This document shows positions 11,923 to 35,313 of a DNA stretch of 64,000 bases, in pieces. Under the pieces are notes generated by a model, which saw only the letters and a program-made list of their open reading frames with translations, was not told the DNA's origin and made no database searches. The stretch covers positions 795,676 through 859,675 of the forward strand of contig JAHRYN010000002.1 of the NCBI GenBank assembly GCA_020621405.1, read 5' to 3'. Within the stretch, counting starts at the first letter, position 1. Each line of letters starts with the position of its first letter. Source of the stretch: Betaproteobacteria bacterium (GTDB lineage Bacteria > Pseudomonadota > Gammaproteobacteria > Burkholderiales > Rhodocyclaceae). A program made the translations under genes and the position numbers.

Positions 11923-12963
11923 ATGCATCACGGGGACATTTCGAGCAGCAAGGACACGGTCGGCGTCGCCGTCGTCAATTACAAGATGCCGCGCCTGCAC
12001 ACGAAGGCCGAAGTGCTGGACAACGCACGCCGGATCGGCGACATGATCGTCGGCATGAAGGCCGGCCTGCCCGGCCTCGATCTGGTCATCTTCCCGGAAT
12101 ACAGCACGCACGGGATCATGTATGACGCGAAGGAAATGTACGACACCGCGTCTACCGTGCCCGGCGACGAAACCGCGATCTTCGCCGCCGCCTGCCGCAA
12201 GGCCAAGGTGTGGGGCGTGTTTTCGCTGACCGGCGAACAGCACGAGGAGCACCCGGACAAGGCGCCGTACAACACGCTGATCCTGATGAACGACCAGGGC
12301 GAGGTGGTGCAGAAGTACCGCAAGATCATGCCCTGGGTGCCGATCGAGGGCTGGTACCCGGGCGACTGCACCTATGTGTCGGACGGCCCGAAGGGCATGA
12401 AGGTCAGCCTGATCATCTGCGACGACGGCAACTACCCGGAAATCTGGCGCGACTGCGCGATGAAGGGTGCCGAACTGATCGTCCGCTGCCAGGGCTACAT
12501 GTACCCGGCGAAGGAACAGCAGATCACCATCTCGAAGGCCATGGCCTTCGCCAACAACGTCTACGTCGCGGTCGCCAACGCGGCCGGTTTCGACGGTGTC
12601 TATACCTACTTCGGCCATTCGGCCATCGTCGGCTTCGACGGCCGCACGCTGGGCGAATGCGGCGAGGAGGAAATGGGCATCCAGTATGCCGCGCTGTCGA
12701 AGAGCCTGATCCGCGACTTCCGCAAGAACGGCCAGTCGGAGAACCACCTGTTCAAGCTGCTGCACCGCGGCTATACCGGCCTGATCAACTCGCGCGAGGG
12801 CGACAAGGGCGTGGCCGCCTGCCCGTACGACTTCTACTCGAAGTGGATCAACGACCCGGAAGGCACGCGCAAGGCGGTCGAAGCGTTCACGCGCGACACC
12901 GTGGGCACCGAGGAATGCCCGATCGAAGGGCTGCCCAACCCGGCCACGATCGGACACAAGTGA
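11923..12963 (+). CDS. amiE: Aliphatic amidase
   Basis: The protein (346 residues, the same length as the Pseudomonas enzyme) starts [20 protein letters not shown] and is co-linear with AmiE. The nitrilase-superfamily catalytic residues fall at the classical positions: Glu59 in FPEY, Lys134 in KYRK and Cys166 in [11 protein letters not shown]. It hydrolyses short aliphatic amides such as acetamide or propionamide to acid plus ammonia in the cytoplasm. Propionate from propionamide could feed the pcc/mcm pathway in this same window. GGGGG lies 7 bases before the ATG. The stop overlaps the GTG of the next gene (GTGA), so the ATPase is translationally coupled. Confidence 0.96.
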
Positions 12964-25613: not shown

Positions 25614-27326
<1,713 letters not shown>

Positions 27327-27353
27327 ATGCTGTCGGCAAGTCCTTCGGCTACC

Positions 27354-27367
27354 ATCCCGGCCGGGAT
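27354..27367. promoter_or_regulatory. Perfect palindrome at the ureC-hsdR junction
   Basis: ATCCCGGCCGGGAT is a 14-bp perfect palindrome 21 bases before hsdR. It could be an operator limiting restriction-gene expression. No promoter is certain. Confidence 0.4.
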
Positions 27368-27388
27368 TCAGGATAGCGCGGGGGCTTC

Positions 27389-30160
27389 ATGACGCCAGAG
27401 GGCAAGGCGCGGCAGCGGATAGATGACAAGCTGGAACAGGCGGGCTGGGTCGTTCAGGACTTCCGGCTGCTCGATCTGGGCGTTGCCCGTGGCGTCGCCA
27501 TACGCGAATACCCGACCGACACGGGCTCGGCCGATTACGTACTGTTCGTCGACCGCGAGCCGGTCGGCGTCATCGAAGCCAAGGCCGATGCATCGATCCT
27601 GACCTTCGTCGAGGAGCAGACCGCCCGCTATGCCGGCAGCGCATTGAAGTGGCGCGTGAAGGCCGAGCCACTCCCCTTCCTGTTCGAAAGCACCGGCCAG
27701 ATCACCCGCTTCACCGATGGCCGTGATCCGTCGCCCCGGTCACGCGAAATCTTCCATTTCTTCACGCCCGGCCAGCTGGCCGAATGGCTGCGTCAGCCCG
27801 ACTCCCTGCGCCACCGCCTGACGACCCGGATGCCCGCGCTGCCGACGCGCAATCTGCGCGACTGCCAGATCGCCGCCGTCACTGGACTCGAAAAGTCTCT
27901 GGCGCAGAACAAGCCGCGCGCCTTGATACACATGGCGACCGGCGCCGGCAAGACCTTCACCGCCATCACCGCCGTGTATCGCCTGCTCAAGTTCGGCGGC
28001 GCGAAACGCGTGCTCTTTCTGGTCGACACGCGCAACCTCGGCAAGCAGGCGCACCAGGAATTCATGGCCTACACGCCGCCGGACGACGGCCGCACCTTCA
28101 CCGAGCTGTACAACGTGCAGCGCCTGGCCGGCCCGCGCATCGACCCGCATGCGCAGGTGGTGATCTCGACCATACAGCGCATGTACTCGGTGCTGTCCGG
28201 CGAAGCCATCGACGACAGCGCCGACGACATTTCGCTGCATGAATTGCAGCCCGGCAGGCAGCCCCGGCTGGTGCGCTACAACGGCGCCATTCCGGTCGAA
28301 ACCTTCGATTTCGTCATCATCGACGAGTGCCACCGCTCGATCTACAACCTGTGGAAGCAGGTGCTCGACTACTTCGACGCTTTCCTGATCGGCCTGACCG
28401 CCACGCCGGACAAGCGCACCTTCGGCTTCTTCAACGAGAACATCGTCGCCGAATACACCTATGAACAGTCGGTGGCCGACGGCGTGAACGTCGGCTACGA
28501 CGTGTACGAGATCGAAACCGAAGTCACGAAGAAGGGTGCCGAGCTGAAGGCGCGCGAATTCATCGACCACCGCGACCGGCTCACGCGCCGGAAGCGCTGG
28601 GCGCAGACCGAAGAGGACGAGGCCTACACCGGCCGCGACCTCGACCGTTCGGTGGTGAACCCGAGCCAGATCCGCCGCGTGATCGAAACGATGAAGCACG
28701 CAGTCGAAACGCAGATTTTCCCGACCCGCCGCGAAACGCCGAAAACACTGATCTTCGCCAAGACCGACAGCCACGCCGACGACATCATCCAGATCGTGCG
28801 CGAGGTGTACGGGCAGGGCAACGCCTTCTGCAAGAAGGTCACCTACCGCACCGACGAAGACCCGGACAGCCTGCTCGCCAGCTTCCGCAACGACTACCAC
28901 CCGCGCATCGCGGTCACCGTCGACATGATCGCCACCGGTACCGACGTGAAGCCGCTCGAAGTGCTGCTGTTCATGCGCGACGTGCGTTCGCGCGGCTATT
29001 ACGAACAGATGAAGGGGCGCGGCGTGCGCAGCCTCGGTTTCGACGACCTCCGGCGGGTCAGCAACAGCGCCGACAGCGCCAAGACCCGCTTCGTGCTGAT
29101 CGACGCGGTCGGCGTCGAAAAGTCGCTGAAGACCGACAGCCGGCCGCTGGAAAAGAGGCCAGGCGTGGCGCTGAAGGACCTGCTGCAGGGCATCGCCATT
29201 GGCCAGCGCGACGACGACACCGTGCTGTCGCTCGCCAACCGTCTGGTGCGGCTGGCAAAGCAGCTCGACGACAAGGCGCAGGCGCGCATCGAAAAAGTGT
29301 CCGGCGGCGTGCCGGTCGGCGAACTGGGCCGCGCACTGATCAACGCATTGAACCCGGACGGCATCGTCGACACCGCGCTCGCCACCGCCTGCGCCCAGGA
29401 CATCGCACGCAACGAGGACTCGCTGACCGATGCCGAACTGGCCGCCGCCCGTGCACTGCGCCTGGCCGCCGCCTGCGCGCCCTTCGACAGACCCGAGCTG
29501 CGCGAACAGATAGAATCCGCCCGCCGCGAGCGCGAACAGCTGATCGACCATCTCAACCTCGACACCGTCACCTTCGCCGGTTACAGCGCGCAGGCCGAGA
29601 ACGAGGCGAACAAGGTCATCGCCACCTTCGCCGACTACATCGCCGCACACCGCGACGACATAGATGCGCTCAACTTCTTCTACCAGCAGCCCTACCAGCG
29701 CCGTGCGCTCACCTTCGACATGATCGAAGACCTGCATGAAACCCTAGCCCGCCCGCCGCTGCTGCTCACCAACGAACGGCTGTGGGCCGCCTACGCCCGC
29801 GTGCAGGGCACCCGGGTCAGCGGCGGCGACACCCGCCGCCAGCTCACCGACCTGATCGCACTGGTGCGCTTCGCCCTCGGGCTGGACAACGAACTGAAAC
29901 CTTTCGCCGAACAGGTTGACCGCCGCTTCCAGGAGTGGATCTTCCGCCACAACGCGCAGCGCGCCACCGCCTTCACGCCGGAACAGACCGAATGGCTGCG
30001 CCTGATCAAGGACCACATCGCCAGCAGCTGCCGCATCGAACGTGACGACTTCGACTACGCCGCCTTCGCGGCACGCGGCGGTCTGCAGAAGGCATGGTCG
30101 CTGTTCGGCGAACAACTGGATGAAGTGATGAAGGAAATGAATGAGGAGTTGGTGGCTTGA
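27389..30160 (+). CDS. hsdR: Type I restriction enzyme R subunit
   Basis: The 923-residue protein has an N-terminal PD-(D/E)xK nuclease (Asp49 in SADYVLF; Glu63 and Lys65 in VIEAKAD). A superfamily-2 translocase follows: Walker A ATGAGKTF near residue 185, DECH near 311, GLTATP, and later ATGTDVKPLEVLLFMRDV with QMKGRGVR. A C-terminal EcoEI-type region binds the modification complex. It is the motor and nuclease of the HsdR2M2S1 complex, cutting DNA that lacks host methylation. No frameshift is seen. Its stop overlaps the TTG of hsdS. Confidence 0.95.
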   Translation: MTPEGKARQRIDDKLEQAGWVVQDFRLLDLGVARGVAIREYPTDTGSADYVLFVDREPVGVIEAKADASILTFVEEQTARYAGSALKWRVKAEPLPFLFESTGQITRFTDGRDPSPRSREIFHFFTPGQLAEWLRQPDSLRHRLTTRMPALPTRNLRDCQIAAVTGLEKSLAQNKPRALIHMATGAGKTFTAITAVYRLLKFGGAKRVLFLVDTRNLGKQAHQEFMAYTPPDDGRTFTELYNVQRLAGPRIDPHAQVVISTIQRMYSVLSGEAIDDSADDISLHELQPGRQPRLVRYNGAIPVETFDFVIIDECHRSIYNLWKQVLDYFDAFLIGLTATPDKRTFGFFNENIVAEYTYEQSVADGVNVGYDVYEIETEVTKKGAELKAREFIDHRDRLTRRKRWAQTEEDEAYTGRDLDRSVVNPSQIRRVIETMKHAVETQIFPTRRETPKTLIFAKTDSHADDIIQIVREVYGQGNAFCKKVTYRTDEDPDSLLASFRNDYHPRIAVTVDMIATGTDVKPLEVLLFMRDVRSRGYYEQMKGRGVRSLGFDDLRRVSNSADSAKTRFVLIDAVGVEKSLKTDSRPLEKRPGVALKDLLQGIAIGQRDDDTVLSLANRLVRLAKQLDDKAQARIEKVSGGVPVGELGRALINALNPDGIVDTALATACAQDIARNEDSLTDAELAAARALRLAAACAPFDRPELREQIESARREREQLIDHLNLDTVTFAGYSAQAENEANKVIATFADYIAAHRDDIDALNFFYQQPYQRRALTFDMIEDLHETLARPPLLLTNERLWAAYARVQGTRVSGGDTRRQLTDLIALVRFALGLDNELKPFAEQVDRRFQEWIFRHNAQRATAFTPEQTEWLRLIKDHIASSCRIERDDFDYAAFAARGGLQKAWSLFGEQLDEVMKEMNEELVA

Positions 30161-31704
30161 GCGCAACTCCGCCGCTTCCGGCCTCTTGGAGCTATGCCCC
30201 GATCGAAGCTGTCGCCGATATCAATCCGCGTTCATTCAGCCCGGTGCCCGGAGCAGATCCGCTCACTGTTCATTTCGTGCCGATGACGGCGGTAACCGAA
30301 GAATTCGGCGGTATCGACGTCTCACGACAACGCCCTCTCGGCGAAGTCCGGAAGGGCTACACGTCGTTCACTGCGAATGATGTGCTCTTCGCGAAAATCA
30401 CCCCATGCATGGAGAACGGCAAGGTCGCGTTGGTACCGACACTTTCGAATCACATCGCTTACGGTTCAACCGAATTCCATGTCCTTCGAGCGGGCGATGC
30501 CGTTGAGCCAAAGTGGCTTGCGTACTTCCTATCGCGAACGACTTTCCGGGAGTTAGCCCGTCAGAACATGACCGGTAGCGCCGGACAGATGCGCGTGCCG
30601 ACCAATTGGCTCTGCGCCACCCAATTGCCGGTTGCACCGCGCGCGGAACAAACCCGCATCATCGAAAAACTCGAAGAACTGCTGTCCGACCTCGACGCCG
30701 GCGTGGCCGAACTGAAGGCGGCGCAGAAGAAGCTGACGCTGTACCGGCAGTCGCTGCTGAAAGCCGCTGTCGAAGGCGTCCTCACCGCCGGCTGGCGCGC
30801 CCGACGCGCCGCGCGCGGCACCCCCCAGGAGACCGGTGCTGACCTGCTGGCCCGCATCCTCTCCGAACGCCGCGCCCGCTGGGAAGCGCGACAACTGGCG
30901 AAGTTCAAGGAACAGGGCAAGACGCCGCAGAAGGGGTGGCAGGCGAAATATCCAGAACCGGTGCGACCCGACACTGAGAAATTGCCGATGTTGCCCGAGG
31001 GCTGGGCCTGGGCAAGCGTGGCGCAGTTGGGTGAAGTCACGACAGGTTCTACACCATCGACTAATGATGCGGAGAACTTTGGCGACGCTATTCCCTTCTT
31101 TAAGCCTGGCGACCTCGATGCGGGCTACTACGTTGAACAATCTCGCGAGAGGCTCTCAGAAGCCGGCGCAGCAATGGGGCGAGTGCTTCCCGAGAACTCG
31201 GTTCTGGTGACATGTATTGGCGCAACCATCGGCAAGACCGGATTCGCCCGTGTTTCCTGCGCGACGAATCAGCAGATCAATGCGCTGTCGGTTTCGGAAG
31301 GTGGAGTCATTCCTGAGTTTGTTTATTGGCTGATGGTCAGCGGCGCTGGACAGCGACAGATAATTGAGAATGCGTCTGCAACCACTCTCCCGATTTTGAA
31401 CAAATCGAAGTTCGAGAAGCTTGTACTGCCAATAGCGCCATTGCCCGAGCAGACAGAGATAGTTTCTGTGCTTGAGACAGAATCAGAGCGCATATCAACC
31501 CAAGAGACGGCGATCAAACAAGCTCTCCGACAAGCCACCGCCCAGCGCAAGAATCTCCTCAAAGCCGCCTTCGCCGGCCAGCTCGTTCCACAGAACCCGA
31601 ACGACGAACCGGCCAGCACACTGCTCGCGCGCATCCGCGCCGAGCGCGAGGTGCACAACCATGGCCGCCCGACCCGACGCACGAGGAAAACCTCTCATGC
31701 ATGA
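30157..31704 (+). CDS. hsdS: Type I restriction-modification specificity subunit
   Basis: The 515-residue product has the two-fold layout of HsdS: TRD1 (about 10-165), a conserved helical spacer (EQTRIIEKLEELLSDLDAG onward), TRD2 (about 275-420) and a second helical repeat (LPEQTEIVSVLETESERIST). Both TRDs are lower in GC than their flanks, as expected for exchanged recognition domains. It sets the bipartite DNA target for methylation and cutting. It starts at TTG overlapping the hsdR stop (TTGA), with GGAG upstream; full length, so recognition should be intact. Confidence 0.93.
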   Translation: MSATPPLPASWSYAPIEAVADINPRSFSPVPGADPLTVHFVPMTAVTEEFGGIDVSRQRPLGEVRKGYTSFTANDVLFAKITPCMENGKVALVPTLSNHIAYGSTEFHVLRAGDAVEPKWLAYFLSRTTFRELARQNMTGSAGQMRVPTNWLCATQLPVAPRAEQTRIIEKLEELLSDLDAGVAELKAAQKKLTLYRQSLLKAAVEGVLTAGWRARRAARGTPQETGADLLARILSERRARWEARQLAKFKEQGKTPQKGWQAKYPEPVRPDTEKLPMLPEGWAWASVAQLGEVTTGSTPSTNDAENFGDAIPFFKPGDLDAGYYVEQSRERLSEAGAAMGRVLPENSVLVTCIGATIGKTGFARVSCATNQQINALSVSEGGVIPEFVYWLMVSGAGQRQIIENASATTLPILNKSKFEKLVLPIAPLPEQTEIVSVLETESERISTQETAIKQALRQATAQRKNLLKAAFAGQLVPQNPNDEPASTLLARIRAEREVHNHGRPTRRTRKTSHA

Positions 31705-33199
31705 AACCCTCTCGCCGGAAGTGAGCCATGCAGTAATCAAGCTCATGCTGCAGGCGCCCGAAACCCAGCGATTCGAATGCAAGCGCGTGTCCGGCAAGAT
31801 GGTGGGCAAGGCGCTTGAAACGATCTGCGCGATGGCAAATACCGAGGGCGGCTCGCTCCTGCTGGGTATCGAAGATCCCGGCAAGGAACGAGGCATTGCT
31901 CGCCTGTATGGCATCGGCGAAAACCCGGAAGCCGTCGATGAGTTGCTGCGCAAGTTGGCAACGCATTTACAGCCTTCAGTGGGCGATCTCGAACTGCAGC
32001 GCCTGCCCTGCACTTTGCGCGACGGTTCGCAAGGCGCCTTGTTGCGTATCCGGGTGCCTCGCAGCGACAAGGTGCACTCGATCCTCGATGGCGGCACCTG
32101 GATGCGCGGCGAGGCAAGCAACCGGGTGATGAATGCAGCCGAGATCACCGAGCTGTCGTATCGGCGCGGCGTACGCAGTGCCGAATCCGAGCCCGTGGAG
32201 GTCGATTTCGACTTGCTCGATACCGATGCCTGGCGACTGTTCCGGCAGGCGCGCGGGCTGTCGGGCAGCGAACTGCCAGAGCAGTTGTCCCGCATCGGGC
32301 TGGCGCAGAAGGTCGGCACCGAACTGAAACCACTGCGCGCCGCCGTGCTGCTGTTCGCCGACGAGCCCGGCGCGCTGCTGGCGGCGTCAGGCACGCGGGC
32401 GGACATACGGGTGTTCCATTACCGCGGCAACAAGATCGAACAGGGCGAAGTTCCGAACCTGAAAAAGACGCCGAAAACGATATCCGGCCCGCTGTACCAG
32501 CAGATCACCCGCGCACACGCCTATCTGATGGATGAACTAGCCGAGGGGCTGACGCTGGCGGCATCCGGCTTCCGGACCGTGCACCGCTACCCGGAGCGGG
32601 TGATCAAGGAAGCCATCACCAACGCGGTGATCCACCGCGACTACCACCTGAACCGCGACATCCGGATCCGCATCTTCGACAACCGCATCGAGATTGAAAG
32701 CCCCGGCCTGTTCGCCGGCAAGATCAGCGCAGCCAATATCCAGCGCGCCGGCTCGTTCTCGCGCAACCTCTTGCTGGCGCGCAACCTGCGCGAGTTTCCC
32801 GACCCGCCCAATGTCGATGCCGGCGAAGGCGTTCGCATGATGTTCAGCGTGATGCAGGCCAGCAAGCTGTTCCCGCCGTTCTATTCGGAGCTGAAGGAAC
32901 AGGCGCAGGAAGCCATCATGGTCATGCTGCTGAACGAGGAGCGCCCGCCGGTCTGGGAGCAGGTGAGCGACTGGATGGATCGCAACGGCGCAATCGGCAA
33001 CGCCGATCTGTGCAGGATCGCCAGCCTCGACACGCTGAAGGCATCGAAGCTGCTGAAGCGCTGGGTCGATCAGGGTGTGCTGGTGGCCGACCCGACCCGG
33101 GCCAAGCGCAACATGGTCTATTACAAGCCACTGCAGAACGACATCGGGCAGGAGGAGTTGTTGCCCGGCAGGCTGGAGGATGGCAACGAACCCGGTTAA
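31697..33199 (+). CDS. AlbA_2 (Schlafen-type) plus GHKL-ATPase DNA-binding protein in the hsd cassette
   Basis: The 500-residue protein has an N-terminal AlbA_2/divergent AAA-4 domain (RFECKRVSGKMVGKALETICAMANTEGG; LLLGIED) and, near 300-380, a GHKL-type ATPase fold with N-box EAITNAVIHRDY. A C-terminal winged-helix-like part follows (DLCRIASLDTLKASKLLKRWVDQGVLV). Such proteins are often found in type I R-M cassettes; their job there is unclear and may be regulation or an added defence. It overlaps hsdS by 8 bases and has GAGG upstream. Its stop lies inside a 24-bp palindrome. Confidence 0.85.
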   Translation: MHETLSPEVSHAVIKLMLQAPETQRFECKRVSGKMVGKALETICAMANTEGGSLLLGIEDPGKERGIARLYGIGENPEAVDELLRKLATHLQPSVGDLELQRLPCTLRDGSQGALLRIRVPRSDKVHSILDGGTWMRGEASNRVMNAAEITELSYRRGVRSAESEPVEVDFDLLDTDAWRLFRQARGLSGSELPEQLSRIGLAQKVGTELKPLRAAVLLFADEPGALLAASGTRADIRVFHYRGNKIEQGEVPNLKKTPKTISGPLYQQITRAHAYLMDELAEGLTLAASGFRTVHRYPERVIKEAITNAVIHRDYHLNRDIRIRIFDNRIEIESPGLFAGKISAANIQRAGSFSRNLLLARNLREFPDPPNVDAGEGVRMMFSVMQASKLFPPFYSELKEQAQEAIMVMLLNEERPPVWEQVSDWMDRNGAIGNADLCRIASLDTLKASKLLKRWVDQGVLVADPTRAKRNMVYYKPLQNDIGQEELLPGRLEDGNEPG

Positions 33200-33214
33200 T
33201 CCGGATTAACCGGG
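33191..33214. promoter_or_regulatory. 24-bp perfect palindrome at the end of the AlbA/GHKL gene
   Basis: Half-site CCCGGTTAATCC is followed at once by its reverse complement, with the gene's TAA stop inside the left half. There is no loop and no T-run, so a protein-binding dyad is as likely as a terminator. Confidence 0.6.
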
Positions 33215-33224
33215 GATGAGCAGT

Positions 33225-33319
33225 TTGTTATCCAGTCCGTCGGATAACAACGGCGACCGCCTGATAATTTTGTTTAAAAACAACCGGCTGCAGATTGCTT
33301 GTTATCCTCGAATCTGCAG
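33225..33319. repeat. Nested inverted-repeat element, copy A
   Basis: TTGTTATCC at 33225 and GGATAACAA at 33242 form 9-bp arms around 8 bp. Then come the AT-rich inverted repeat TTGTTT-AA-AAACAA at 33270-33283 and another TTGTTATCC at 33299-33307. That last half-site lies in the loop of a third hairpin with arms CTGCAGATT/AATCTGCAG (33288-33319). The first-to-last half-site distance is 74 bp. Confidence 0.8.
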
Positions 33320-33364
33320 GCGCCAGATGGTGGATACGCACGCAATCCTGCGTCGGAGCAGGCC

Positions 33365-33448
33365 GGTTGTTATCCAGATGCCTGGATAACAACCAGAATG
33401 GAACAAAAAAAATATTAAAAACATGAGCTTGTTTTTTTCTCATTATCC
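33365..33448. repeat. Nested inverted-repeat element, copy B
   Basis: Arms GGTTGTTATCCA/TGGATAACAACC (12 bp, 6-bp loop) are followed by an AT-rich inverted repeat AAAAACA-N6-TGTTTTT (33417-33436) and a half-site ATTATCC at 33442. Half-site spacing is 73 bp, as in copies A and C. Confidence 0.78.
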
Positions 33449-33615
33449 CTGTTGCGGTAATCAGCTTTGCTGATCCCGTGCCGCACTGTGCATGCGTCGG
33501 ATCAACGACGCCCGCGCAGAATCGACGTTGCAGCAGGCTGATGATTCCGGGCAGGGGGTAAGCAGACAGGCAGCATGATCGCTGCGATGACGAGCGACAT
33601 CGGCAGGTGTCTTGC
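33449..33615. other. Spacer between repeat copies B and the 21-bp repeats
   Basis: No gene is evident. A short inverted repeat ATCAGCTTTGCTGAT lies at about 33460-33474. Otherwise I see nothing recognisable. Confidence 0.4.
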
Positions 33616-33668
33616 CACAGGAGCTCTGGCCTTTAGCACAGGAGCTCAGCCTGCTACCACAGGAGCTC
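33616..33668 (+). repeat. Three 21-bp-spaced CACAGGAGCTC repeats
   Basis: The 11-mer CACAGGAGCTC occurs at 33616, 33637 and 33658, exactly 21 bp apart, that is two helical turns, so bound proteins would face the same side. The intervening 10-mers differ. The array lies between copies B and C of the nested repeat and about 150 bp before hsdM. Confidence 0.85.
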
Positions 33669-33701
33669 GCAAACCCGGTCAGGCAAACACCGGGAAGAAC
33701 C

Positions 33702-33787
33702 GTTTGTTATCCATGCGGCCGGATAACAAACCCCGATCGACATGGTTTTGTTTATAAAACAATGGCTTGCGAAACCACTTATTATCC
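33702..33787. repeat. Nested inverted-repeat element, copy C
   Basis: Arms GTTTGTTATCC/GGATAACAAAC (11 bp, 8-bp loop) are followed by TTGTTT-ATA-AAACAA at 33748-33762 and a half-site TTATTATCC at 33779-33787. Half-site spacing is 75 bp. This copy ends 32 bases before the hsdM start, so it probably contains or controls the hsdM promoter (TATTAT at 33780-33785 could be a -10). Confidence 0.8.
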
Positions 33788-33818
33788 CGGACGCTCGCCA
33801 CAACCTCTTTACACCCCC

Positions 33819-35276
33819 ATGAATGCTTCAACCCTCGTCCAGAAGGTCTGGAATTTCTGCCACACGCTGCGCGACGATGGCGTGGGCTACGGTGACTACC
33901 TTGAACAGCTCACCTATCTGCTGTTCCTGAAGCTGGCGCACGAGTATTCCGAGCCGCCGTACGAGCGCAACACGCACATCCCGAAAAGCTGCGACTGGAC
34001 GACCCTGCGCAACCGCACCGGCGAGCCGCTGGAGGCACACTACTTGAGTGTGCTGCACAAGCTGGGGCAGGAGCCGGGCATGTTGGGCGCGATCTTTTTC
34101 AAGGCGCAGAACAAGATACAGGACCCGGCCAAGCTGGCGCGGCTGGTGCAGATGATCGACGCCGAGCGCTGGATCAGCCTCGATACCGACACCAAGGGCG
34201 ACCTGTACGAGGGCCTGCTGCAGAAGAATGCGGAAGACACGAAGAGCGGAGCCGGCCAGTACTTCACGCCGCGCGCGCTGATCGAGGCCATGGTGGCCTG
34301 CGTGCAGCCGGCGCCGATGAAAACCATCGCCGATCCGGCCTGCGGCACCGGCGGTTTCTTTCTCGGCGCCTACAACTGGCTGAACCGCCCGGACGCCAAC
34401 CTGAACAAGCGGCAGAAGGAATTCCTGCGCGACCGGACCTTCCACGGCAACGAAATCGTGCCCGGCACGCGCCGCATGTGCCTGATGAACCTGTTCCTTC
34501 ACAACATCGGTGAACTGGATGGCGAACCGCTGGTGGAACGCACCGATGCGCTGATTTCAGACCCCGGCAAACGCTTCGACTATGTGCTGGCCAATCCGCC
34601 CTTCGGCAAGAAGAGCAGCATGACCATCACCAATGAGGATGGGGAAGAGGACCGCGATGCGCTGACCTACCAGCGGCAGGACTTCTGGGAAACCACGTCG
34701 AACAAGCAGCTCAACTTCCTGCAGCACATCGTCACCATATTGAAGGACAACGGTCAGGCCGCCGTGGTGCTGCCCGACAACGTGCTGTTCGAGGGCGGTG
34801 CGGGCGAGAAGATACGTCGCAAGCTGCTGGAAACCTGCGACGTGCACACGCTGCTGCGCCTGCCGACCGGCATCTTCTACGCACAGGGCGTGAAGGCGAA
34901 CGTACTGTTCTTCGACGCACGCCCGAAGGACGGCAAGGTGCACACAAAAGGAGTGTGGATCTACGACCTGCGCACCAACATGCACTTCACGCTGAAGACC
35001 CGGCAGCTGAAGCTTGCAGACCTGCAGGACTTCATCGAGTGTTACCGACCCGACAACCGGCATGAACGAACGGAGAACGAACGCTTCCGTTACTTCACGC
35101 ACGAAGCGCTGGTGGCGCGCGACAAGGCCAGTCTGGACATCTTCTGGCTGAAGGACGACAGCCTGGGCAAGCTGGACGACCTGCCGCCGCCGGACGTGCT
35201 GCAGCAGGAAATCATCGAGCACCTTGAGGCCGCCCTTCAATCATTCCGCGACGTGGCGGCAGGACTGGCGCGATAA
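33819..35276 (+). CDS. hsdM: Type I restriction-modification methyltransferase subunit
   Basis: The 485-residue protein starts MNASTLVQKVWNFCHTLRDDGVGYGDYLEQLTYLLFLKLA, the usual HsdM helical N-terminus. It has the AdoMet motif DPACGTGGFFLGAYNW near residue 173 and the catalytic ANPPFGKKS near 257, typical of N6-adenine methylases. It methylates the HsdS-defined site and forms the core of the restriction complex. No Shine-Dalgarno is seen before the ATG, unlike the other hsd genes. In-frame sequence continues upstream through the repeats but is not conserved-looking. It is separated from hsdS by another gene and a 619-bp spacer, so it has its own control. Confidence 0.94.
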   Translation: MNASTLVQKVWNFCHTLRDDGVGYGDYLEQLTYLLFLKLAHEYSEPPYERNTHIPKSCDWTTLRNRTGEPLEAHYLSVLHKLGQEPGMLGAIFFKAQNKIQDPAKLARLVQMIDAERWISLDTDTKGDLYEGLLQKNAEDTKSGAGQYFTPRALIEAMVACVQPAPMKTIADPACGTGGFFLGAYNWLNRPDANLNKRQKEFLRDRTFHGNEIVPGTRRMCLMNLFLHNIGELDGEPLVERTDALISDPGKRFDYVLANPPFGKKSSMTITNEDGEEDRDALTYQRQDFWETTSNKQLNFLQHIVTILKDNGQAAVVLPDNVLFEGGAGEKIRRKLLETCDVHTLLRLPTGIFYAQGVKANVLFFDARPKDGKVHTKGVWIYDLRTNMHFTLKTRQLKLADLQDFIECYRPDNRHERTENERFRYFTHEALVARDKASLDIFWLKDDSLGKLDDLPPPDVLQQEIIEHLEAALQSFRDVAAGLAR

Positions 35277-35313
35277 CTGCTTTCCTACCGGTAACCCGTT
35301 GCCCCCTTCCACC

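What the first reader, a model, noticed from the sequence alone, without database searches (positions are those of the whole stretch)
31697..33199. AlbA_2/GHKL-ATPase protein embedded in the hsd cassette
The gene overlaps hsdS by 8 bases, so it is translated with the restriction genes, yet it has no role in classical type I complexes. Combining an AlbA_2/Schlafen-like domain, a GHKL ATPase fold and a winged-helix end suggests a regulator or an extra defence effector. The repeat array starts directly after its stop.
Basis: partly seen in the sequence, partly recalled or inferred. Interest (0 to 1): 0.6.

Follow-up and report, generated by a model that had tools for sequence, protein, structure and literature searches.

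The report
Schlafen-like regulator with three-part DNA switch
A gene inside a bacterial restriction (anti-phage) cassette encodes a Schlafen-like protein whose DNA-binding tail appears to read a three-part DNA element, built around a likely DNA-bending site, that sits at the end of its own gene and just before the methylase gene; this points to an unusual way of controlling restriction systems.

Summary
In detail: a 500-aa AlbA_2/GHKL/winged-helix gene (31697-33199) overlaps hsdS by 8 bases, and the repeats start at its stop. The protein architecture is already known. The new result is the DNA. The "repeat array" is three copies (33225-33307, 33367-33448, 33704-33787) of one element: a 9-8-9 palindrome (TTGTTATCC-N8-GGATAACAA), an IHF-type site, and a third half-site 73-76 nt from the palindrome start. 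A copy, sometimes degenerate, sits at the 3' end of the gene in 21 of 21 relatives of 52% identity or more; none was found on the 5' side; distant relatives lack it. Upstream genes vary (type I, McrBC-like, others, or ordinary host genes), so it belongs to this gene, not to hsdM. Residue 473, in the winged-helix wing, is the only one of 459 testable columns that perfectly tracks half-site base 2; both changed together in 4 of 4 switches on a tree built without that domain. Best reading: the protein binds its own element with IHF and controls the promoter downstream (here hsdM). Binding is well supported by sequence; IHF binding and the effect on hsdM are inferred; RNase function is untested. 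New variant of a known kind.

The parts
25614..27326 (+). ureC; left flank of the inserted cassette
   Evidence: ureC lies directly beside ureE in 7 of 10 same-genus loci fetched, hsdM between in 3, the window among these 3
27389..30160 (+). hsdR (EcoEI_R_C, ResIII)
30157..31704 (+). hsdS
31697..33199 (+). SLFN_AlbA_2 / GHKL (HATPase_c_4) / winged-helix gene, 500 aa (P0001)
32930..33145 (+). winged-helix domain, residues 412-483
   Evidence: fold matches CadC, AntR, MexR; very weak sequence match to the 3lmm C-terminus
33113..33115 (+). codon of Met473, wing residue that tracks half-site base 2
33191..33214 (.). 24-nt palindrome over the stop codon; a similar one precedes two elements of L010; role unknown
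33225..33307 (+). element 1: palindrome 33225-33250, IHF-like site 33278-33290 (7 of 9), third half-site 33299-33307
33367..33448 (+). element 2: palindrome 33367-33392, IHF-like sequence at the expected place 33419-33431 (7 of 9, read by eye; the scan's listed best, also 7 of 9, was elsewhere), third half-site 33440-33448
33704..33787 (+). element 3: palindrome 33704-33729, IHF-type site 33757-33769 (8 of 9), third half-site 33779-33787; 31 nt lie between it and the hsdM ATG
33615..33668 (.). 21-bp tandem repeats between elements 2 and 3
33819..35276 (+). hsdM, 485 aa
35308..35808 (+). ureE; right flank of the inserted cassette

Best explanation
The protein is a sequence-specific DNA-binding regulator. 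A dimer binds the 9-8-9 palindrome through its C-terminal winged helix; IHF bends the DNA in between so that a further subunit binds the third half-site, making a closed nucleoprotein complex. In this cassette the last copy ends 31 nt before hsdM, so the complex most likely covers and represses the hsdM promoter; ATP binding by the GHKL domain, or a phage-linked signal read by the Schlafen domain, would open it. Supported by sequence evidence: the three-part element, its IHF-type motif at a set place, its link to this gene, and base/residue co-variation. Inferred: dimer and looped complex, IHF occupancy, repression rather than activation, hsdM as target, role of ATP and of the Schlafen domain.
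For: Element at the 3' end of the gene in 21 of 21 near loci, 31 copies in all; spacer 8 nt in 29 of 31; third half-site at 73-76 nt in 31 of 31, at 75 in 18 (recounted; the search that found them allowed spacers of 7-9 and offsets of 45-99). A scan of whole loci found palindrome plus third site only 3' of this gene and on its strand (that scan is strict and re-finds 14 of the 21, the palindrome alone 16). IHF consensus at 8-9 of 9 positions in 14 of 31 mid-segments against a mean of 1.6 (maximum 5) in 500 dinucleotide shuffles; 21 of 31 best matches stand 21-22 nt before the third site. The genome has an IHF-alpha gene over the curated cut-off. Residue 473 is Met where the majority base 2 is T (11 of 11) and Thr or Ala where it is C (8 of 8); the only perfect separator among 459 columns. 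On a tree built without the winged helix both traits need 4 changes and go together in 4 of 4 independent pairs. Of 2000 random 4-change labelings, 296 had a perfect separator anywhere, 24 in the winged helix, 3 in the wing. hsdM follows the last element in 6 of 21 loci, after 10-31 nt in 5 of them (136 in L002). In 6 of 29 elements the IHF core and third half-site fall on a weak -35/-10-like pair with an 18-nt spacer.
Against: The scan found no sigma-70 promoter in 33100-33900, and promoter-like pairs over all elements (17 of 29) barely exceed shuffles (12.3); on the reverse strand 12 against 12.1. In L007, L008, L012 and L032 the next gene is convergent, and in L037 and L038 hsdM lies upstream, so hsdM cannot be the general target. 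No element was found 5' of the gene, where an autoregulator usually has its operator. The independent-pairs sign test alone is p = 0.125; 15% of random labelings have a perfect separator somewhere, and the wing was named as the region after seeing the hit. Half-sites are not uniform within loci (one of nine in the window and one of three in L006, L007 and L012 has the other base 2). Degenerate copies: L006, L007, L033, L035. In 10 of 31 copies the best IHF match is not at the set place (window element 2, L001 all three, L003 both, L007, L011, L033, L035; some are ties). The IHF score is also raised on the reverse strand (210 against 194, shuffle maximum 206). One genome (G529) has an element after an hsdR-like gene but no close relative of the protein.
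Confidence: 0.6

Rival explanations
1. The element is bound by the protein, but its purpose is to hold a Schlafen-type RNase inactive on DNA (a DNA leash); release on infection lets the RNase cut tRNA. Transcription of hsdM is secondary.
For: Schlafen fold (SLFN13 Z 8.7, SAMD9 tRNase domain Z 9.6); E22, E27 and D60 kept in nearly all near rows; genes with an element but no defence gene recognised beside them, e.g. L008 with a convergent UDG-type gene downstream; strong purifying selection in the pair L008/L009 (dN/dS 0.028, dS near saturation); same architecture described as an accessory RNase in print.
Against: No evidence here of RNase activity or of toxicity; E27 is Lys in 5 of 5 distant rows; the triad match is by motif and its spacing is 5 residues shorter than in Schlafens; several copies just before hsdM fit a promoter role better.
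Confidence: 0.2
2. The element is the attachment or end site of a mobile defence cassette (tyrosine-recombinase or transposase type), not an operator.
For: Inverted arms round a fixed 8-nt variable spacer plus an IHF-type site resemble phage att sites (recalled); genes upstream vary (hsd, McrBC-like, others); the hsd cassette is an insertion in ure.
Against: No second element found at the other end (L009 shows almost no upstream DNA and L003 and L012 only a few kb); spacers differ between copies in one locus; half-sites co-vary with this protein's wing; no recombinase among the 20 proteins of relatives' loci scanned by Pfam, though not every neighbour was scanned.
Confidence: 0.08
3. The element acts as RNA: hairpins in the 3' part of the mRNA (stability, attenuation or a small RNA).
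For: The two palindrome arms pair in RNA in 5 of 5 copies folded; z-scores -1.3 to -4.5.
Against: No Rfam family; the third half-site is not paired in the same way from copy to copy; an IHF-type DNA motif at a set place and co-variation with a DNA-binding wing are not predicted by RNA; L002 and L032 break arm pairing while other half-sites keep the consensus.
Confidence: 0.07
4. Another DNA-binding protein of the host reads the element and the link to this gene is only position.
For: A solo element exists in G529 without a close relative of the gene.
Against: Element seen almost only with the near clade of this protein: 3 of 60 distant loci have any three-part repeat near the stop against 91 of 1741 background windows; wing residue co-variation.
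Confidence: 0.05

Closest known systems
Schlafen RNase - minimal histidine kinase - wHTH proteins linked to BREX and related systems (PMC12839542, passages seen)
   Same: Same three-domain order; linked to defence operons
   Different: There described as backup RNases; the passages seen mention no DNA element; here the winged helix is tied to a cis element
DIP2311 of Corynebacterium diphtheriae (PDB 3lmm)
   Same: Nearest solved full-length fold (Foldseek E 2.7e-20; VIA Z 22.2 over 339 residues)
   Different: 16-22% identity, rmsd 12.8 over the whole; deposited as an uncharacterized protein
RptR, repressor of a type I R-M defence island (PMC12255303: abstract, passages and one section seen)
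   Same: Dedicated repressor of a type I R-M island; several operator copies
   Different: 79-aa helical protein, first gene of the island, 6-bp TAGCTA sites over the -10 box; IHF not mentioned in what I saw
IHF-bent nucleoprotein sites: phage Mu operator/enhancer, lambda cosB, lambda att, P1 parS (recalled, not looked up)
   Same: Half-sites on both sides of an IHF bend
   Different: Other proteins and functions; no sequence relation tested
BrxR / WYL regulators and type II C proteins (PMC9122601: search listing only; rest recalled)
   Same: Regulators travelling with defence genes
   Different: Other folds, operators upstream of the target (recalled)

Membership tests
SLFN_AlbA_2 (PF04326) | Profile match over the curated cut-off | tested here: met
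   52.3 bits against 25.3
SLFN_AlbA_2 (PF04326) | Schlafen N-lobe fold | tested here: met
   SLFN13 Z 8.7, SLFN5 Z 8.7, SAMD9 Z 9.6-9.8; profile match to SLFN14 E 2e-8
Schlafen-type RNase | Three acidic catalytic residues | tested here: inconclusive
   E22 18 of 18 rows that reach it, E27 17 of 18 (Asp in L036), D60 17 of 18 by pairwise alignment; equivalence to the Schlafen triad rests on a recalled motif, and one HMMER alignment pairs E27 with Ser
Schlafen-type RNase | RNA cleavage | not testable with these tools
   -
GHKL ATPase | Profile and N-box/G-box residues | tested here: met
   PF13749 47.4 bits against 26; E305, N309, G337, G376, G378 invariant in 21 rows; ATP binding itself untested
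Winged-helix DNA-binding regulator | wHTH fold | tested here: met
   residues 412-483, CadC/AntR/MexR; no Pfam family there
Winged-helix DNA-binding regulator | Sequence-specific operator read by the domain | tested here: inconclusive
   co-variation only: 19 of 19 loci, 4 of 4 switches; binding itself not testable here
IHF-dependent operator | IHF consensus at a fixed place | tested here: met
   14 of 31 at 8-9 of 9 against 1.6 expected; 21 of 31 at the set place; consensus recalled
IHF-dependent operator | IHF binding and need for IHF | not testable with these tools
   IHF alpha present in the genome
RptR | 79-aa helical repressor, first gene of the island | tested here: not met
   500 aa, gene between hsdS and hsdM
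Mobile-element end or att pair | Matching site at both ends of the cassette | tested here: not met
   no element found 5' in the loci scanned (limits)
Rfam RNA families | Covariance-model match | tested here: not met
   no match over gathering score in 31600-33900

The most novel reading that the evidence does not exclude
The gene and its IHF-bent element form a self-contained defence unit: a Schlafen RNase parked on its own DNA site, where the IHF-DNA complex is the sensor. Phage interference with IHF, nucleoid DNA or the site releases the RNase and at the same time frees the promoter of the linked restriction genes, joining restriction and abortive infection in one switch that different defence cassettes have acquired.
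Probability: 0.13. Interest if true: 0.88.

Novelty: new variant of a known kind. Interest (0 to 1): 0.62.

Why it matters
How type I restriction genes are switched on safely is poorly known. This gives a specific, testable control element (three half-sites and a likely IHF bend) with a named reading residue, found beside unrelated defence cassettes. It also suggests a concrete job for the winged helix of the widespread Schlafen-GHKL-wHTH proteins.

Tried and rejected
Promoter and terminator scans: nothing in 33100-33900; over 29 elements promoter-like pairs are not clearly above shuffles. Sigma-54 consensus: none of the elements reached 9 of 12. Rfam: nothing over the gathering score. Operator at the gene's own 5' end: looked for in 7 loci and upstream of hsdR in 3, no TTATC/GATAA half-site. 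Same arrangement in distant relatives (about 21-38% identity): 3 of 60, background 91 of 1741 windows. Element without the gene: of 14 exact sites in 399 genomes of the order, 7 stand at the 3' end of this gene, 1 after an hsdR-like gene (G529), 6 elsewhere; the reversed control pattern gives 7. Two of the 6 (G716, G627) were fetched and show none of the six query proteins; the other 4 were not looked at. Recombinase att-site and RNA readings: see rivals. Literature: 'Schlafen' with 'integration host factor', 0 papers; a five-term search on IHF, R-M, winged helix and operator, 0 papers; the 12 listed of 79 papers hold 'integration host factor' 0 times; also (listings only). Only the held open-access library was searched; the preprint on bacterial Schlafens is not held.

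Rows dropped: of 37 candidate elements, 31 were kept and 6 dropped by eye (L002 +35, L007 +321, L010 +127, L012 +555, L035 +435, L039 +37). L010 +127 is a real-looking palindrome without a third site at the right distance. The keeping was motif-guided; a generic scan that knows no motif finds the arrangement near the stop in 15 of 21 near loci. L007 and L038 were left out of column and promoter counts as near-duplicates. L012, L033 and L039 cover only part of the protein.

My first gene calls in relatives were poor in GC-rich loci and were redone by codon usage; L010 was still called wrongly there, and its genes come from tblastn.

Full report
What was checked. The gene at 31697-33199 encodes 500 aa, overlaps hsdS by 8 bases and is followed by hsdM at 33819. 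The cassette is hsdR - hsdS - this gene - repeats - hsdM and sits between ureC and ureE. Relatives with the same order at the same place are Methyloversatilis (L001, 90% and L010, 88% identical). Of 10 same-genus loci fetched round ureE (one is the window itself), 7 have ureC directly beside ureE and 3 have hsdM between (13 genomes matched, 10 loci given), so the cassette is an insertion.

The protein. Pfam gives SLFN_AlbA_2 (22-146) and HATPase_c_4 (320-402). A predicted structure (21-row alignment, mean pLDDT 83.4) matches DIP2311 (3lmm) over much of its length (Z 22.2, 339 residues, but rmsd 12.8, so the domain arrangement differs), Schlafens and SAMD9 at the N-terminus, GHKL kinases in the middle, and ArsR/MarR winged helices at 412-483 (Z 8-10, middling by that tool's own note).

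The repeats. Each window palindrome TTGTTATCC-N8-GGATAACAA is followed by a third half-site: element 1 at +74, element 2 at +73, element 3 at +75. I then took the relatives found (12 loci) and in genomes of the family, class and order. The near set is 21 loci (window, L001-L012, L032-L039). All 21 have such an element at the 3' end of the gene: 31 copies, spacer 8 nt in 29 of 31, third site at 73, 74, 75 and 76 nt in 5, 5, 18 and 3 copies. Copies in L006, L007, L033 and L035 are degenerate. The copies were picked with the motif in mind; a motif-free scan finds the arrangement in 15 of 21. The first copy starts inside the coding sequence in 14 of 21 loci, always in the same frame (C-terminal LLSxxxDNN and variants), as common descent would give; in the window, L001, L010, L005, L008 and L009 it lies 19-27 nt after the stop and the C-terminal codons no longer hold the palindrome. 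In L033 the copy counted starts 119 nt after the stop. The arms change together (TTG...CAA against TCA...TGA), which the peptide does not explain, so the constraint is on DNA.

IHF. The 47-50 nt between palindrome and third half-site hold the IHF consensus WATCAANNNNTTR (recalled) at 8 or 9 of 9 positions in 14 of 31 copies; 500 sets of dinucleotide shuffles gave a mean of 1.6 and a maximum of 5. In 21 of 31 the best match stands 21-22 nt before the third site; in 10 it does not. An A-rich tract lies about 13 nt upstream of it (27 copies aligned), as in strong IHF sites (recalled). The reverse strand is also somewhat raised (210 against 194 +/- 4, shuffle maximum 206). The genome has IHF alpha over the curated cut-off.

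Link to this gene. A scan of the whole loci finds palindrome plus third site only 3' of this gene and on its strand. That scan is strict: it re-finds 14 of the 21 (palindrome alone 16), and some loci show little upstream DNA (L009 almost none). In 399 genomes of the order the exact pattern has 14 sites: 7 at this gene, 1 after an hsdR-like gene in a genome without a close relative of the protein (G529), 6 elsewhere; the reversed control pattern has 7. Distant relatives do not have it: 3 of 60 against a background of 91 of 1741 windows. The neighbours vary: hsdR-hsdS (window, L001, L010, L002, L005), hsdS with AAA_21 and DUF4276 (L003), hsdR-hsdM-hsdS upstream (L037, L038) and hsdS (L034), AAA with DUF2357/PDDEXK_7 (L006; L007 has the DUF2357/PDDEXK_7 gene), AAA_15 and RNA ligase (L032). 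L036 stands between a redoxin and a thioesterase-type gene, and L008 before a convergent UDG-type gene, so these two look stand-alone. L009 and L035 reach the contig end, so one side is unseen. hsdM follows the element in 6 of 21.

The protein reads the element. Across 19 non-duplicate loci, residue 473 is Met where the majority half-site base 2 is T (11 loci) and Thr or Ala where it is C (8 loci). It is the only perfect separator among 459 columns (335 variable). Single half-sites with the other base occur in the window (1 of 9) and in L006, L007 and L012 (1 of 3 each). On a tree of residues 1-405 the two traits each need 4 changes and move together in 4 of 4 independent pairs (sign test p 0.125, the least that 4 pairs allow). 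In 2000 random 4-change labelings a perfect separator occurs anywhere in 296, in the winged helix in 24, in the wing in 3. Residue 473 lies in the wing, next to strand 475-476. Its codon is about 110 nt before element 1 in the window; it is nearer where the element is coding, but still outside it, so the two are not the same letters.

Mechanism. I commit to an IHF-assisted operator: dimer on the palindrome, bend, third contact. In the hsd cassettes the last third half-site ends 31, 29, 29, 10 and 10 nt before hsdM (window, L001, L010, L003, L005) and 136 nt before it in L002, so repression of hsdM is the natural reading, and element 3 could also affect ureE and the genes after it. In 6 of 29 elements the IHF core and third half-site fall on a weak -35/-10 pair, but such pairs overall (17) are not clearly above shuffles (12.3), and the window shows no sigma-70 promoter. 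Loci with convergent neighbours or with hsdM upstream speak against hsdM, or any one downstream gene, as the general target. The gene is nevertheless kept there: dN/dS for L008/L009 is 0.028, with dS 1.9 near saturation. That leaves room for the bolder reading that the element restrains a Schlafen RNase.

Novelty. Protein: known kind. Element and its link to the wing: not found in the held library by the searches named in Tried and rejected; subscription papers and preprints were not searched.

Noticed in passing
27327-35307: The whole hsd cassette is inserted between ureC and ureE; 7 of 10 same-genus loci fetched show the empty arrangement. A promoter at element 3 might read on into ureE and later genes.
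   Followed up: partly
33191-33214: Perfect 12+12 palindrome CCCGGTTAATCC/GGATTAACCGGG over the stop codon; a similar GGTTA-N8-TAACC stands before two of the elements in L010. Not part of the three-part element.
   Followed up: partly
33612-33818: The hsdM frame is open upstream to a TTG at 33612 and would add a peptide with LPQEL-type 7-aa repeats from the 21-bp tandem repeats; in L001 the hsdM frame opens only at 12526, so this is probably chance.
   Followed up: partly
L062 (G529), near 8.7 kb, element on the - strand of the locus: Solo three-part element after an hsdR-like gene in a genome with no relative of the protein at E <= 1e-60.
   Followed up: partly
L004 9740-9950: What reads like a remnant of an hsdR start (MTPEAKARQ...) directly before the AlbA_2 gene: perhaps a deletion that removed hsdR and hsdS but kept this gene and two elements.
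   Followed up: no
L137 (DQ115807.1): A 2.8-kb GenBank contig labelled Cyanobacteria phage AS-1 encodes an hsdS end and the first 227 residues of a 66% identical relative; perhaps mislabelled bacterial DNA.
   Followed up: partly
L001 14097-15278: A 393-aa AAA_22 gene between hsdM and ureE in one relative, absent in the window.
   Followed up: no
L065-L123: 59 distant relatives of the protein on IMG/VR viral contigs, so the wider family may also be carried by prophages.
   Followed up: partly
L011, L035, L012, L033, L039: The gene is broken (two frames in L011, one stop in L035) or only partly present in five of the 21 near loci, yet an element is still recognisable beside it.
   Followed up: partly
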